Assembly: GCF_002288065.1 (NCBI RefSeq)
Contig: NZ_CP016773.1
Location: forward strand, 434,001-498,000
DNA length: 64,000 nt
Origin: Candidatus Planktophila sulfonica
GTDB taxonomy: Bacteria; Actinomycetota; Actinomycetes; Nanopelagicales; Nanopelagicaceae
Direction of reading: 5' to 3'
Shown: one piece after another, positions 24,332 through 41,574 of the stretch
Layout: each line of letters begins with the position of its first letter
Numbering within the stretch: position 1 is the first letter of the stretch
Made by a program: the position numbers and the translations under genes
The notes under the pieces: generated by a model
What the model saw: only the letters and a program-made list of their open reading frames with translations
Told to the model about the DNA's origin: nothing
The model's database searches: none

Positions 24332-27175
24332 ATGTCAGATACGGTCATCAATCGACCAGTAAAGATCAAAGCTCACAACACCCTCAAGGGTAAGGGCTTA
24401 ACGATCGAACGCATTTATACAAAAGAAGGCGTTCATCCATACGATGAAGTTAAGTGGGAACGTCGCGACGTCGTTCAGGCTAACTGGAAAACAGGCGAGA
24501 CCGTATTTGAACAACGCGGTGTTGAATACCCTGACTTCTGGTCAGTGAATGCTTCAACAATCGTAACCACCAAGTACTTCCGTGGCGCAGTCGGTGCTGA
24601 AAACCGCGAATGGTCTCTTAAGCAGGTCATTGATCGCGTTGTACTCACCTACACAAAGGCCGGAAAAGAATTCGGTTACTTTGCAACTGATGCAGATGCA
24701 ACAATTTTCGAGCACGAACTTACACACATGCTCATGCACCAAATCTTCTCTTTCAACTCCCCAGTTTGGTTTAACGTCGGAACTGCTGCCCCACAGCAAG
24801 TATCTGCATGCTTCATCTTGTCTGTTGATGACACTATGGATTCAATCCTTAACTGGTACCGCGAAGAAGGAATGATCTTTAAGGGCGGTTCTGGTGCCGG
24901 TCTTAACCTTTCACGTATCCGTTCTGCAAAGGAACTTCTTAAGTCAGGTGGAACAGCTTCAGGGCCAGTTTCATTTATGCGCGGTGCTGATGCATCTGCA
25001 GGAACAATCAAATCTGGTGGCGCAACCCGTCGCGCTGCAAAGATGGTTGTTCTCGATGTAGATCACCCAGATATCGAAGAATTTATCGAGACCAAGGTCA
25101 ATGAAGAGGACAAGATTCGCGCCCTCCGTGATGCTGGCTTTGATATGGACCTTGGTGGAAAAGACATCATCTCTGTCCAGTACCAGAATGCAAACAACTC
25201 AGTACGCCTTTCAGATAAGTTCATGAAGGCTGTTGAAAACGGTGAGCAGTTTGGTCTAACAGCTCGTTCAACTGGTGAAGTTATTGACACAGTTGATGCG
25301 CGCGAACTCTTCACAAAGATCGCACAAGCTGCATGGGCATGTGCTGACCCAGGAGTTCAATTTGATGACACCATCAATGATTGGCACACAACTCCAGAGA
25401 CAGGTCGCATCAATGCGTCAAACCCTTGCTCTGAGTACATGTCACTTGATAACTCATCATGTAACTTGGCTTCACTTAACTTGATGAAGTTCCTCAAGGC
25501 AGATGGTTCATTCGATGCAAAGACATTTGCAAAGGCATCTGACTTGATCATCACCGCAATGGATATCTCAATCTGTTTCGCAGATTTCCCAACCGAAGCA
25601 ATTGGTGACACAACTCGTGCCTTCCGTCAGCTCGGAATCGGATACGCAAACCTTGGCGCGCTTCTAATGGCATCAGGCCTTGCATACGATTCAGAAGGCG
25701 GCCGTGCTCTTGCTGGTTCAATCACATCGCTTCTCACCGGAACGACATACAAGCGTTCTGCTGAACTCGCGGGAATCGTTGGACCATACGCAGGCTTCGC
25801 ACAAAATGCTAAGCCACATGCACGCGTTATGCGCAAGCACGCTGCTGCTTCATCTGCTGCAAAGCAAGAAACCACACTCGATATCGATGTATGGGCAGAA
25901 GCAAATAAGGCGTGGGATGCATGTCTTTCAATTGGTGACAAGAACGGATGGCGCAACGCGCAGATCTCAGTTCTTGCACCAACAGGAACAATTGGTTTGA
26001 TGATGGATTGCGATACAACCGGTATCGAACCTGACTTCTCACTCGTTAAGTTCAAGAAGCTTGTCGGTGGCGGATCTATGCAGATCGTTAACCAGACAGT
26101 TCCACAGGCTCTTCGTAAGCTTGGATACACCGAAGAAACCATCGAAGCGATCGTTGAATTTATCGCTGCAAATGGACACGTCATCGATGCCCCAGGACTT
26201 AAGCAAGAGCACTACGAAGTATTTGACTGTGCACTTGGTGCACGATCAATCGCTCCAATGGGCCACGTCCGCATGATGGCTGCTTGCCAGCCATTCTTGT
26301 CAGGTGCAATTTCAAAGACAGTTAACCTTCCTGAAGATGCAACTGTTGAAGAAGTTGAAGAAGTTCACCTCGAAGCATGGCGTATGGGCATCAAGGCACT
26401 TGCTGTCTACCGCGATAACTGCAAGGTCGGTCAGCCACTTTCAGATGGCAAGGCTAAGAAGAAAGAAGCAGTTGTTGAAGAAGACGTTGCAACTCCAGTG
26501 CGCAAGCGCCTTCCTAAGTCACGTCCTGCAACAACAACTTCATTCTCAGTCGGAGGCGCAGAGGGTTACATGACCGCTGGTGCATACGCTGATGGTGCAC
26601 TCGGTGAGGTATTCCTCAAGCTCGGTAAGCAGGGTTCAACTCTTGCCGGCGTCATGGATGCATTCTCAATCGCAGTATCGATCGGTCTTCAGTACGGAGT
26701 ACCTCTCGAGACATTCGTAGAGAAGTTCACCAACCTACGCTTCGAACCAGCAGGTATGACAGATGATGCAGATGTTCGCATCGCACAGTCAATGATGGAT
26801 TACATCTTCCGTCGCTTGGCACTTGATTACCTTCCATTCGAACAGCGTTCAGCAATGGGTCTTTACACAGCAGCAGAGCGCGCAGCAGCTCTCGATAACG
26901 GTGGTGAGTACGTTGAACTCGCTAAGGAAACCGATAGCCCAAAAGCACCTGTTGCGGCGGCTCCTGTAGCTGCTCCAAGTAAGCCGGTAGCAGTAAAGAT
27001 TGAAGCAGCGCCAGCTGCTCCACTTGCTGCAACGATTGGTTCATCATCTGATCTCCTAGAATCAATGGGAATCAAATCAGATGCGCCAATGTGTATGACA
27101 TGTGGCGTGAAGATGCGTATGTCAGGTGCTTGCTACGTATGCGAAGGTTGTGGAAACACATCTGGTTGCAGCTAA
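24332..27175 (+). CDS. nrdJ: adenosylcobalamin-dependent ribonucleotide reductase (class II)
   Basis: 947 aa. Features of class II RNR: SGGTASGPVSFMRGADASAGTIKSGG is only partly quoted here as GPVSFMRGADASAG (~210-223), NPCSEYM with an active-site Cys near 366, and LAPTGTIG near 549. The C-terminus has CMTCGVKM...CYVCEGCGNTSGCS-like paired cysteines that re-reduce the active site. It makes deoxyribonucleotides and needs vitamin B12. Distances to nrdR (3 bp) and the following strong terminator define a two-gene operon. No cobalamin riboswitch was seen in front of it. Confidence 0.96.
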   Translation: MSDTVINRPVKIKAHNTLKGKGLTIERIYTKEGVHPYDEVKWERRDVVQANWKTGETVFEQRGVEYPDFWSVNASTIVTTKYFRGAVGAENREWSLKQVIDRVVLTYTKAGKEFGYFATDADATIFEHELTHMLMHQIFSFNSPVWFNVGTAAPQQVSACFILSVDDTMDSILNWYREEGMIFKGGSGAGLNLSRIRSAKELLKSGGTASGPVSFMRGADASAGTIKSGGATRRAAKMVVLDVDHPDIEEFIETKVNEEDKIRALRDAGFDMDLGGKDIISVQYQNANNSVRLSDKFMKAVENGEQFGLTARSTGEVIDTVDARELFTKIAQAAWACADPGVQFDDTINDWHTTPETGRINASNPCSEYMSLDNSSCNLASLNLMKFLKADGSFDAKTFAKASDLIITAMDISICFADFPTEAIGDTTRAFRQLGIGYANLGALLMASGLAYDSEGGRALAGSITSLLTGTTYKRSAELAGIVGPYAGFAQNAKPHARVMRKHAAASSAAKQETTLDIDVWAEANKAWDACLSIGDKNGWRNAQISVLAPTGTIGLMMDCDTTGIEPDFSLVKFKKLVGGGSMQIVNQTVPQALRKLGYTEETIEAIVEFIAANGHVIDAPGLKQEHYEVFDCALGARSIAPMGHVRMMAACQPFLSGAISKTVNLPEDATVEEVEEVHLEAWRMGIKALAVYRDNCKVGQPLSDGKAKKKEAVVEEDVATPVRKRLPKSRPATTTSFSVGGAEGYMTAGAYADGALGEVFLKLGKQGSTLAGVMDAFSIAVSIGLQYGVPLETFVEKFTNLRFEPAGMTDDADVRIAQSMMDYIFRRLALDYLPFEQRSAMGLYTAAERAAALDNGGEYVELAKETDSPKAPVAAAPVAAPSKPVAVKIEAAPAAPLAATIGSSSDLLESMGIKSDAPMCMTCGVKMRMSGACYVCEGCGNTSGCS

Positions 27176-27192: not shown

Positions 27193-27236
27193 AGAAATCC
27201 CCCGACTTGGTTACAGGTCGGGGGATTTCTCTTTCT
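27193..27236 (+). terminator. Rho-independent terminator of nrdR-nrdJ
   Basis: A perfect 14-bp stem (27193-27206 with 27217-27230, core AAATCCCCCGAC / GTCGGGGGATTT), 10-nt loop, followed by CTTTCTT. Confidence 0.9.
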
Positions 27237-27296
27237 TAATTCAAAACTTTCATAAATTAAAGAATCAAAAATGGTTCCAAATGCTATTTTTCCCTT

Positions 27297-27484
27297 GGCG
27301 AACAGATGCGCCTCTGAGGACTCGCATCTGGTGGCCGGCAAGTCAGCTTTGATTCAATTCGAAGGTGGCTACCGGCCTCGTCACCAAAATGGAACGCCGC
27401 CTTGAGAATTCTCAAGACGACGCCCAACTTCCGTTACGAAGTATCTGAATGCCCGTCGTTCTTGCGGCGGGCATTCTTCATTTC
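27297..27484 (+). ncRNA. candidate structured non-coding RNA of unknown family
   Basis: Lies in the 675-bp gap between nrdJ and ribD. Hairpin 1: 27303-27310 with 27323-27330 (8 bp, perfect). Hairpin 2: GGCCGG 27333-27338 with 27372-27377, extended by GGTG/CACC. Hairpin 3: the 16-bp palindrome 27401-27416. A closing helix is possible between TTGGCG 27295-27300 and CGCCCAA 27421-27427. It ends in a 12-bp terminator-like hairpin (27447-27476, one G-U pair). An extended -10 (TGCTATTTT, 27282-27290) is suitably placed. Length (~185 nt) is in the range of 6S-type RNAs but I cannot assign a family. Confidence 0.45.
27447..27484 (+). terminator. terminator-like hairpin ending the candidate RNA
   Basis: Stem 27447-27458 / 27465-27476 (GAATGCCCG... 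/ ...CGGGCATTC) with a 6-nt loop, then TTCATTTCT. Confidence 0.65.
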
Positions 27485-27698
27485 TATAAATAGAAATATG
27501 AATCTGCACGTGCACAAAACGATTTCGAGCGCTTCTTCTAGCTTCATAACTCCTCCCTTCTCTCATCCGCCACGGATGCGGCGGAATAATTGGGGGAAGT
27601 CAGTGACGGACCCAACGAGATCTGGAAGCGAAGTGCGCGAAAAATAGGTCTTTGAACCAAGCGTTTTATTTGATTTCTCGACCCCTGTGGATGAGTAG

Positions 27699-27704: not shown

Positions 27705-27712
27705 CACGGTGT

Positions 27713-27834
27713 TGTTATCGGGGTCGATGTAATTTCGAACCGGCGGTTATAGTCCGCGACCCGCACATATCCAATGGGCGGTTGACTCAGTGAAACTCTG
27801 GGACCGACGGTTAAAGTCCGGATGAGAGATAACA
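27713..27834 (+). promoter_or_regulatory. FMN riboswitch (RFN element)
   Basis: Conserved RFN segments are present: the 5' GGGGTCG...ATTTCGAACCGGCGGTTA part, AGTCCGCGACCC, then TGACTCAGTGAAACTCTGG and ACCGACGGTTAAAGTCCGGATG. P1 pairs 27713-27719 with 27828-27834. Only 16 bases separate it from the ribD ATG, so it most likely controls translation initiation of the operon in response to FMN. Confidence 0.95.
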
Positions 27835-27850
27835 GCGGAATCGGTGCACC

Positions 27851-41448: not shown

Positions 41449-41562
41449 GGTCACGAGTTCTCATCGATAGCCCCGGCTGATGAGACGGCAACCCTCCACC
41501 GCGGTGGGGTGCTCCGGGTGACGACCAGGCAGGTGCGTGTAATGCGCAGTTGCAAGTGCGTG
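41449..41562 (+). promoter_or_regulatory. SAM-IV riboswitch
   Basis: Conserved SAM-IV blocks: GGTCACGAG at the 5' end, AGCCCCGGCT, CGGCAACCCTCCACCGCGG, TGGGGTGCTCCGGGTGACGACC, then a small hairpin TGCG/CGCA near 41533-41547 and a 3' segment before the Shine-Dalgarno. SAM-IV is found mainly in actinobacteria before methionine genes. It ends next to GAAGGA (41562-41567), the metX ribosome site, so SAM probably blocks translation. Confidence 0.9.
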
Positions 41563-41574
41563 AAGGATTTTTCT

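What the first reader, a model, noticed from the sequence alone, without database searches (positions are those of the whole stretch)
27237..27484. Unassigned structured RNA candidate between nrdJ and the rib operon
Three clear hairpins, a possible closing helix, an upstream extended -10 and a terminal hairpin with T-rich tail occur in a 675-bp gap in an otherwise packed genome. Length ~185 nt resembles 6S-class regulators. I match it to no known riboswitch.
Basis: partly seen in the sequence, partly recalled or inferred. Interest (0 to 1): 0.58.

Follow-up and report, generated by a model that had tools for sequence, protein, structure and literature searches.

The report
Tiny membrane peptide with antisense RNA
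The folded stretch between two ordinary genes of a freshwater actinobacterium is not a 6S-like RNA; it looks like an unannotated 37-residue membrane peptide gene with a structured RNA transcribed against it, an arrangement typical of bacterial self-poison and antidote pairs, but no transcript or toxicity has yet been measured.

Summary
On the minus strand lies a 37-codon gene (27547-27434) with a strong ribosome site and a promoter-like -10; a TTATCCACA-like box sits a fixed 48 bp upstream of the -10. Relatives of the peptide (one predicted helix, hydrophobic N-terminal part, charged RR...ND tail) occur in 48 of 296 genomes of the family. Two hairpins have opposite strand signatures: the one after the stop codon tolerates G-U on the mRNA strand (28:0 hairpins), the one inside the ORF on the opposite strand (18:2), and codon choice there is bent to match. 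Across relatives the antisense half survives alone at nine distinct strongly matching loci, the peptide half at none. I read it as a type I toxin-antitoxin-like module of Planktophila and relatives (Actinomycetota), possibly DnaA-linked. Toxicity and transcripts are untested. Not 6S, not a riboswitch, no Rfam match.

The parts
27434..27547 (-). Small ORF, 37 codons plus stop (27436-27434): MKLEEALEIVLCTCRFIFLFIEMKNARRKNDGHSDTS; proposed toxin-like membrane peptide
   Evidence: Homologs of equal or near-equal length (33-39 aa) with ribosome sites; profile hits in 48 of 296 family genomes; pN/pS 0.31-0.60 in five groups
27550..27557 (-). Shine-Dalgarno sequence GGGAGGAG
   Evidence: Sequence; conserved in relatives
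27566..27585 (-). Leader hairpin just upstream of the Shine-Dalgarno
   Evidence: fold; the equivalent hairpin of the second subfamily has changes on both sides in 4 of 7 pairs
27384..27635 (-). Proposed peptide mRNA, about 250 nt (ends inferred from the -10 and the terminator)
   Evidence: Fold z -5.51; no transcript data
27641..27646 (-). -10-like element TATTTT of the peptide gene
   Evidence: TA-rich -10-like sequence 48 bp (47 in two) after the box start in 29 units
27685..27694 (-). TCATCCACAG, DnaA-box-like (8 of 9 to TTATCCACA)
   Evidence: 29 of 29 units have at least 7 of 9 and 23 of 29 at least 8 of 9, null mean 0.33; TTATCCACAG occurs at 4 places in the own genome, two of them flanking dnaA
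27392..27425 (-). Hairpin 3: terminator-like stem of the peptide mRNA
   Evidence: Terminator scan on - strand; 88 sense G-U against 12 sense A-C in 30 distinct hairpins
27447..27476 (+). Hairpin 4 inside the peptide ORF; proposed terminator of the antisense RNA
   Evidence: 6 sense G-U against 31 sense A-C in 28 distinct hairpins; codon choice; terminator scan on + strand
27282..27290 (+). Extended -10-like element TGCTATTTT of the antisense RNA
   Evidence: TGCTAT or TGCTAC followed by a T-rich run in the five members with the junction, and TGCTAT in L098 which lacks it
27296..27383 (+). Three-way junction at the 5' end of the antisense RNA (P1 27296-27301/27378-27383, P2 27303-27330, P3 27333-27377); present in five genomes
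   Evidence: 34 pairs, 2 with both sides changed, G-U intermediates on + strand
27297..27487 (+). Proposed antisense RNA (antitoxin-like), about 185-190 nt
   Evidence: Fold z -7.01; opposite-strand signature of hairpin 4; no transcript data

Best explanation
The locus is a type I toxin-antitoxin-like module. The minus strand encodes a 37-residue membrane-type peptide from its own promoter, which carries a DnaA-box-like site at a fixed 48 bp upstream of the -10 (shown by comparison; that DnaA binds it is inferred). Its mRNA folds so that the leader can cover the ribosome site (supported by covariation in one subfamily) and ends at hairpin 3. From the other side a convergent promoter makes an antisense RNA that runs through the complement of hairpin 3 and the last third of the ORF and stops at hairpin 4, whose strand of action is shown by G-U and codon patterns. 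The antisense RNA would pair over a long stretch with the peptide mRNA and block translation or trigger its decay (inferred from systems with this layout). When the balance is upset the peptide would insert in the membrane and stop growth (inferred, untested).
For: Peptide family: 34 of 135 genus genomes at E<=0.1, 48 of 296 family genomes at E<=0.01; invariant E22, R27, R28 in 27 sequences; single helix 3-33, mean pLDDT 85.9; hydrophobic 17-mers, mean KD 1.6-2.1 in six members. Opposite strand signatures: hairpin 3 28:0 for sense, hairpin 4 18:2 for antisense. Codons pinned in hairpin 4: Asp GAC 20 of 21 (usage 0.21), Ala GCC 19 of 21 (0.16), Gly GGG 14 and GGA 3 of 17 (GGG 0.08), while Arg27, opposite an A, takes both CGC (15) and CGT (9). 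Leader: ribosome-site helix with changes on both sides in 3 of 5 pairs; covariation score of the leader structure above 500 of 500 shuffles. Loss asymmetry: 18 of 18 strong 5' halves have a 3' half; 10 evaluable strong 3' halves (9 distinct loci) stand without a 5' half; three of five weak matches in a second genus are also truncated. The antisense promoter-like sequence is kept in the truncated copies.
Against: No RNA-seq, no toxicity test. Strand counts come from related sequences, so they are not independent. pN/pS is only modestly below the shuffled null (shuffles at or below observed: 14, 23, 0, 10 and 41 of 200 in five groups). For most single sequences the ribosome-site complementarity does not exceed shuffled leaders, the window's included (187 of 200 shuffles as high). 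In the second subfamily the tails after hairpins 3 and 4 are only moderately T-rich. No -35 is recognisable and the promoter scan found no site. 101 of 135 genus genomes and 248 of 296 family genomes show no match, so the module is dispensable. No Pfam, NCBIfam or PHROGs family matches.
Confidence: 0.6

Rival explanations
1. A small regulatory membrane protein rather than a toxin: the peptide is expressed under DnaA control and binds a membrane partner, comparable in logic to Sda of Bacillus; the antisense RNA only tunes its level.
For: DnaA-box-like site at fixed distance in 29 of 29 units; the sda promoter is described as rich in DnaA boxes (passages of PMC6399470); peptide conserved with modest constraint.
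Against: 3' halves kept alone and 5' halves never alone is not expected for a benign peptide; copy number variation, tandem copies and patchy presence suit an addiction-like or selfish module better.
Confidence: 0.2
2. The conserved 3' part is the functional object, a stand-alone small RNA or bidirectional terminator acting on other genes, and the peptide is secondary.
For: Nine distinct strong loci keep only the 3' part; its structure covaries well.
Against: Peptide leader, ribosome site and reading frame are conserved across genera; a mere terminator needs no conserved AATTAAAGCA and palindrome downstream; copies lie beside varied genes.
Confidence: 0.13
3. An independent + strand structured RNA, a 6S-like or other trans-acting regulator, that merely overlaps a small gene.
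For: Three-way junction with + strand G-U pairs and some covariation; fold z -7.0.
Against: The junction was found in only five genomes and is absent from L098, where the same -10 runs straight into the antisense part; RF00013 gives nothing in the genome.
Confidence: 0.05
4. Chance hairpins and a spurious ORF in an intergenic gap.
For: Small size; weak coding statistics in some groups.
Against: Profile E-values down to about 1e-20, fixed box spacing, covariation.
Confidence: 0.02

Closest known systems
Convergent Gram-positive type I modules: txpA/RatA, bsrG/SR4, yonT/SR6 (Bacillus), CD2517.1/RCd8 and relatives (Clostridioides), Fst/RNAII (Enterococcus)
   Same: Small hydrophobic peptide with charged C-terminus; antisense RNA gene facing it and overlapping the 3' part of the mRNA (layout as described in passages of PMC6563280 and PMC8167048)
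   Different: No detectable sequence relation to a named family; the antisense terminator-like hairpin lies inside the peptide's coding sequence; DnaA-box-like site; Actinomycetota instead of Firmicutes
TisB/IstR and AapA1 modules
   Same: mRNA structure that holds back translation (passages of PMC8167048); peptide of similar kind; regulator site upstream
   Different: TisB is LexA-controlled; here the site resembles a DnaA box; AapA1 uses a 5'-3' interaction, here a leader helix at the ribosome site
sda of Bacillus subtilis
   Same: Small protein gene with DnaA boxes at its promoter (passage of PMC6399470)
   Different: Sda is a soluble kinase inhibitor (recalled) without antisense RNA; only one box is seen here
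6S RNA (RF00013)
   Same: Similar length of about 185 nt
   Different: No model match in the genome; no long single hairpin with central bubble

Membership tests
Type I toxin-antitoxin system | Toxin under about 60 aa, hydrophobic or transmembrane, charged C-terminus | tested here: met
   33-39 aa, hydrophobic stretch, RR...ND tail, one predicted helix
Type I toxin-antitoxin system | Antisense RNA transcribed against the toxin mRNA | tested here: inconclusive
   Comparative signatures for an opposite-strand RNA, conserved opposite-strand -10-like sequence; no transcript measured
Type I toxin-antitoxin system | Toxin mRNA structured so that translation is restrained | tested here: inconclusive
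   Ribosome-site helix covaries in one subfamily; per-sequence complementarity mostly not above shuffles
Type I toxin-antitoxin system | Toxin half is not maintained without the antitoxin half | tested here: met
   0 of 18 strong 5' halves alone; 10 evaluable strong 3' halves alone, 9 distinct loci
Type I toxin-antitoxin system | Overexpressed peptide stops growth and the RNA neutralises it | not testable with these tools
   Needs experiment
A named type I toxin family (Fst, Ldr, TisB, Hok and similar) | Match to a curated protein family model | tested here: not met
   Four peptides against Pfam, NCBIfam and PHROGs at E<=10: nothing above a curated cut-off, no type I toxin family listed; PDB profile search 0
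6S RNA | Match to RF00013 | tested here: not met
   0 matches in the whole genome
Known riboswitch or other Rfam RNA | Gathering-level match at the locus | tested here: not met
   Only the FMN riboswitch at 27710-27837 and SAM-IV at 41449-41564 in the window
DnaA-regulated gene | DnaA box at the promoter | tested here: met
   29 of 29 units with at least 7 of 9
DnaA-regulated gene | DnaA binds the box and changes transcription | not testable with these tools
   Needs experiment

The most novel reading that the evidence does not exclude
A type I toxin-antitoxin family native to streamlined freshwater Actinomycetota, the first of that phylum, whose peptide gene is switched by the replication initiator DnaA through a single box at a fixed helical phase, and whose antitoxin terminates inside the toxin's own codons so that peptide tail and antisense terminator have evolved together.
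Probability: 0.4. Interest if true: 0.8.

Novelty: new variant of a known kind. Interest (0 to 1): 0.64.

Why it matters
PMC12390103 (abstract and passages read) states that type I modules had been found only in Proteobacteria, Firmicutes and Tenericutes before its own cyanobacterial case. A family in Actinomycetota, and in genomes of about 1.3 Mb that are thought to shed dispensable DNA, would widen the range and raise the question of why they keep it. The DnaA-box-like site would tie a growth-arrest switch to chromosome replication, which is directly testable in cultured Planktophila strains. The 3'-only copies offer natural experiments on antitoxin retention.

Tried and rejected
6S RNA: rejected. 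Known riboswitch or Rfam RNA: rejected. A + strand only model: rejected because hairpin 3 has C-A mismatches on + and G-U pairs on minus. Phage origin: two exact DNA patterns gave 0 matches in viral contigs, a weak test since it needs exact identity. The 33-base match in another family, L007, is not the junction. Wider class: 12 of 394 sampled genomes, all in the same family, 2 of 137 genera. Per-sequence complementarity of leader to ribosome site against shuffles: mostly negative. Fold searches were not run, a lone helix being uninformative. Rows dropped: of the 39 places taken, partial or contig-cut ones (L109, L110, L112, L113, L115, L123-L126) and two identical to L101 (L102, L103) were left out, and three units (L134, L141, L150) added, for the 31 units used; one search lost one more without upstream sequence and one duplicate. 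In one search the strict scoring picked a different small hairpin instead of hairpin 3 in three of the 30 (L092, L095, L122). Five weak R1 matches and five weak R2 matches (29-42 bits) were left out of the 18 and 29 strong ones; nine of these ten were then read by eye, the tenth (G110) lies at a contig end.

Full report
What is there. The window lies in a 1.34 Mb single-contig genome; the nearest named records are Candidatus Planktophila and related freshwater actinobacteria. The gap between nrdJ (stop at 27175) and ribD (27851) is 675 bp.

The missed gene. Relatives of the DNA showed that the minus strand carries a 37-codon ORF, 27547-27434, behind GGGAGGAG. tblastn over the fetched loci found it with equal length in six distinct loci, the window included. 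A profile of six (A2) hit 34 of 135 genus genomes at E<=0.1; a profile of 27 distinct peptides (A3) hit 48 of 296 family genomes at E<=0.01, in 7 of 17 genera, and 12 of 394 sampled class genomes, all in the same family. E22, R27 and R28 are invariant in the 27. Synonymous excess is modest, pN/pS 0.31 to 0.60 in five groups, with 14, 23, 0, 10 and 41 of 200 column shuffles at or below the observed value. AlphaFold2 gives one helix, residues 3-33, mean pLDDT 85.9. No Pfam, NCBIfam, PHROGs or PDB family fits.

Promoter side. In 29 of 29 distinct units with enough upstream sequence the best 9-mer has at least 7 of 9 matches to TTATCCACA, 23 have at least 8 (shuffled mean 0.33, maximum 3 in 500), and a TA-rich -10-like element follows 47-48 bp after the box start. 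The stretch between is not conserved. The exact TTATCCACAG occurs four times in the own genome, once just upstream of a dnaA ORF and once just downstream of it, so it is this organism's likely DnaA box; binding is inferred. The window's copy is TCATCCACAG.

Two RNAs on opposite strands. I located each hairpin with a scoring that treats sense G-U and sense A-C (G-U on the other strand) alike, then counted. Over 30 distinct hairpins after the stop codon (hairpin 3) there are 88 sense G-U and 12 sense A-C; 28 hairpins favour the mRNA strand and none the other. Over 28 distinct hairpins inside the ORF (hairpin 4) there are 6 and 31; 2 favour the mRNA strand and 18 the other. These are related sequences, so the counts are not independent events. 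Because hairpin 4 is coding, codon bias was checked: Asp is GAC in 20 of 21 (0.21 in 37 long window ORFs), Ala GCC in 19 of 21 (0.16), Gly GGG in 14 and GGA in 3 of 17; third positions opposite a fixed G are almost always C, while Arg27, opposite an A, is CGC 15 times and CGT 9 times. That is the pattern of a hairpin that acts in the antisense transcript. In the second subfamily a promoter-like TGCTTTAATTA on the opposite strand and a palindrome ACTCnGAGT at constant distance follow hairpin 3; in the window's group it is TGCTAT(C)TTT.

In the window and four relatives the antisense RNA has an extra 5' domain, a three-way junction of 34 predicted pairs, two of them with changes on both sides and several with G-U steps on the + strand. 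L098 lacks it and its -10 leads straight into the antisense part. The predicted RNA, 27297-27487, folds at z -7.01.

Leader. In 15 units of the second subfamily the leader shows a hairpin (4 of 7 pairs with both sides changed) and a long-range helix between the mRNA's 5' part and the ribosome site (3 of 5 pairs), with a covariation score above all 500 shuffles for the whole structure. Against this, for most single sequences the complementarity is no better than in shuffled leaders, including the window's. Divergent members of another genus show long matches of the same kind by eye.

Loss pattern. Covariance models of the 5' half (R1) and 3' half (R2) were run over the same 296 genomes. R1: 23 places, 18 of them above 100 bits. 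R2: 34 places, 29 of them above 55 bits. All 18 strong 5' halves have a 3' half next to them. Eleven strong 3' halves have none; one (G141) ends at a contig edge, leaving 10, of which two (G146, G040) carry the same sequence, so nine distinct loci. Their upstream sequences show loss of leader and ORF start, in several with the box still in place (L124, L152, L154), in L149 of promoter and leader only. The 3' half with its antisense -10-like sequence is intact in them. Among the weak matches, read by eye, four 5' halves of genus g37 all have a downstream hairpin; of five 3' halves of genus g46 two have an ORF and three are truncated. No 5' half alone was seen. This is what an antitoxin-toxin relation predicts; a stand-alone role of the 3' RNA would predict it too.

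Reading. Layout and peptide type match convergent type I modules (passages of PMC6563280 and PMC8167048). PMC12390103 (abstract and passages) reports type I modules outside Proteobacteria, Firmicutes and Tenericutes for the first time, in a cyanobacterium. My searches for such a module in Planktophila or Actinomycetota listed no report of one, judged from titles and abstract starts; the library holds open-licence papers only. I therefore call it a probable new type I-like family, with toxicity, transcripts and DnaA binding all unproven.

Noticed in passing
window 41449-41564: SAM-IV riboswitch on the + strand, 97 bits.
   Followed up: no
window 27710-27837: FMN riboswitch ahead of the rib operon, 101.9 bits; the DnaA-like box of the divergent peptide gene ends only 15 bp upstream of it.
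   Followed up: no
window 27193-27230; L020 8601-8637; L026 7913-7949: A nearly identical terminator-like hairpin (CCCyCGACTTGGTTACAGGTyGGGGG) recurs after different genes in related genomes, more alike than terminators need to be.
   Followed up: no
L167, L168, L092, L094 downstream of the peptide genes: A box like AACTACTTTAAGT ends many units of the first subfamily and of genus g37 on the antisense promoter side; no regulator is known to me.
   Followed up: partly
L105, L114, L141: Two copies of the unit, or of its 3' half, about 0.4-1.3 kb apart, and copies beside varied ordinary genes, suggest the module moves or duplicates.
   Followed up: partly
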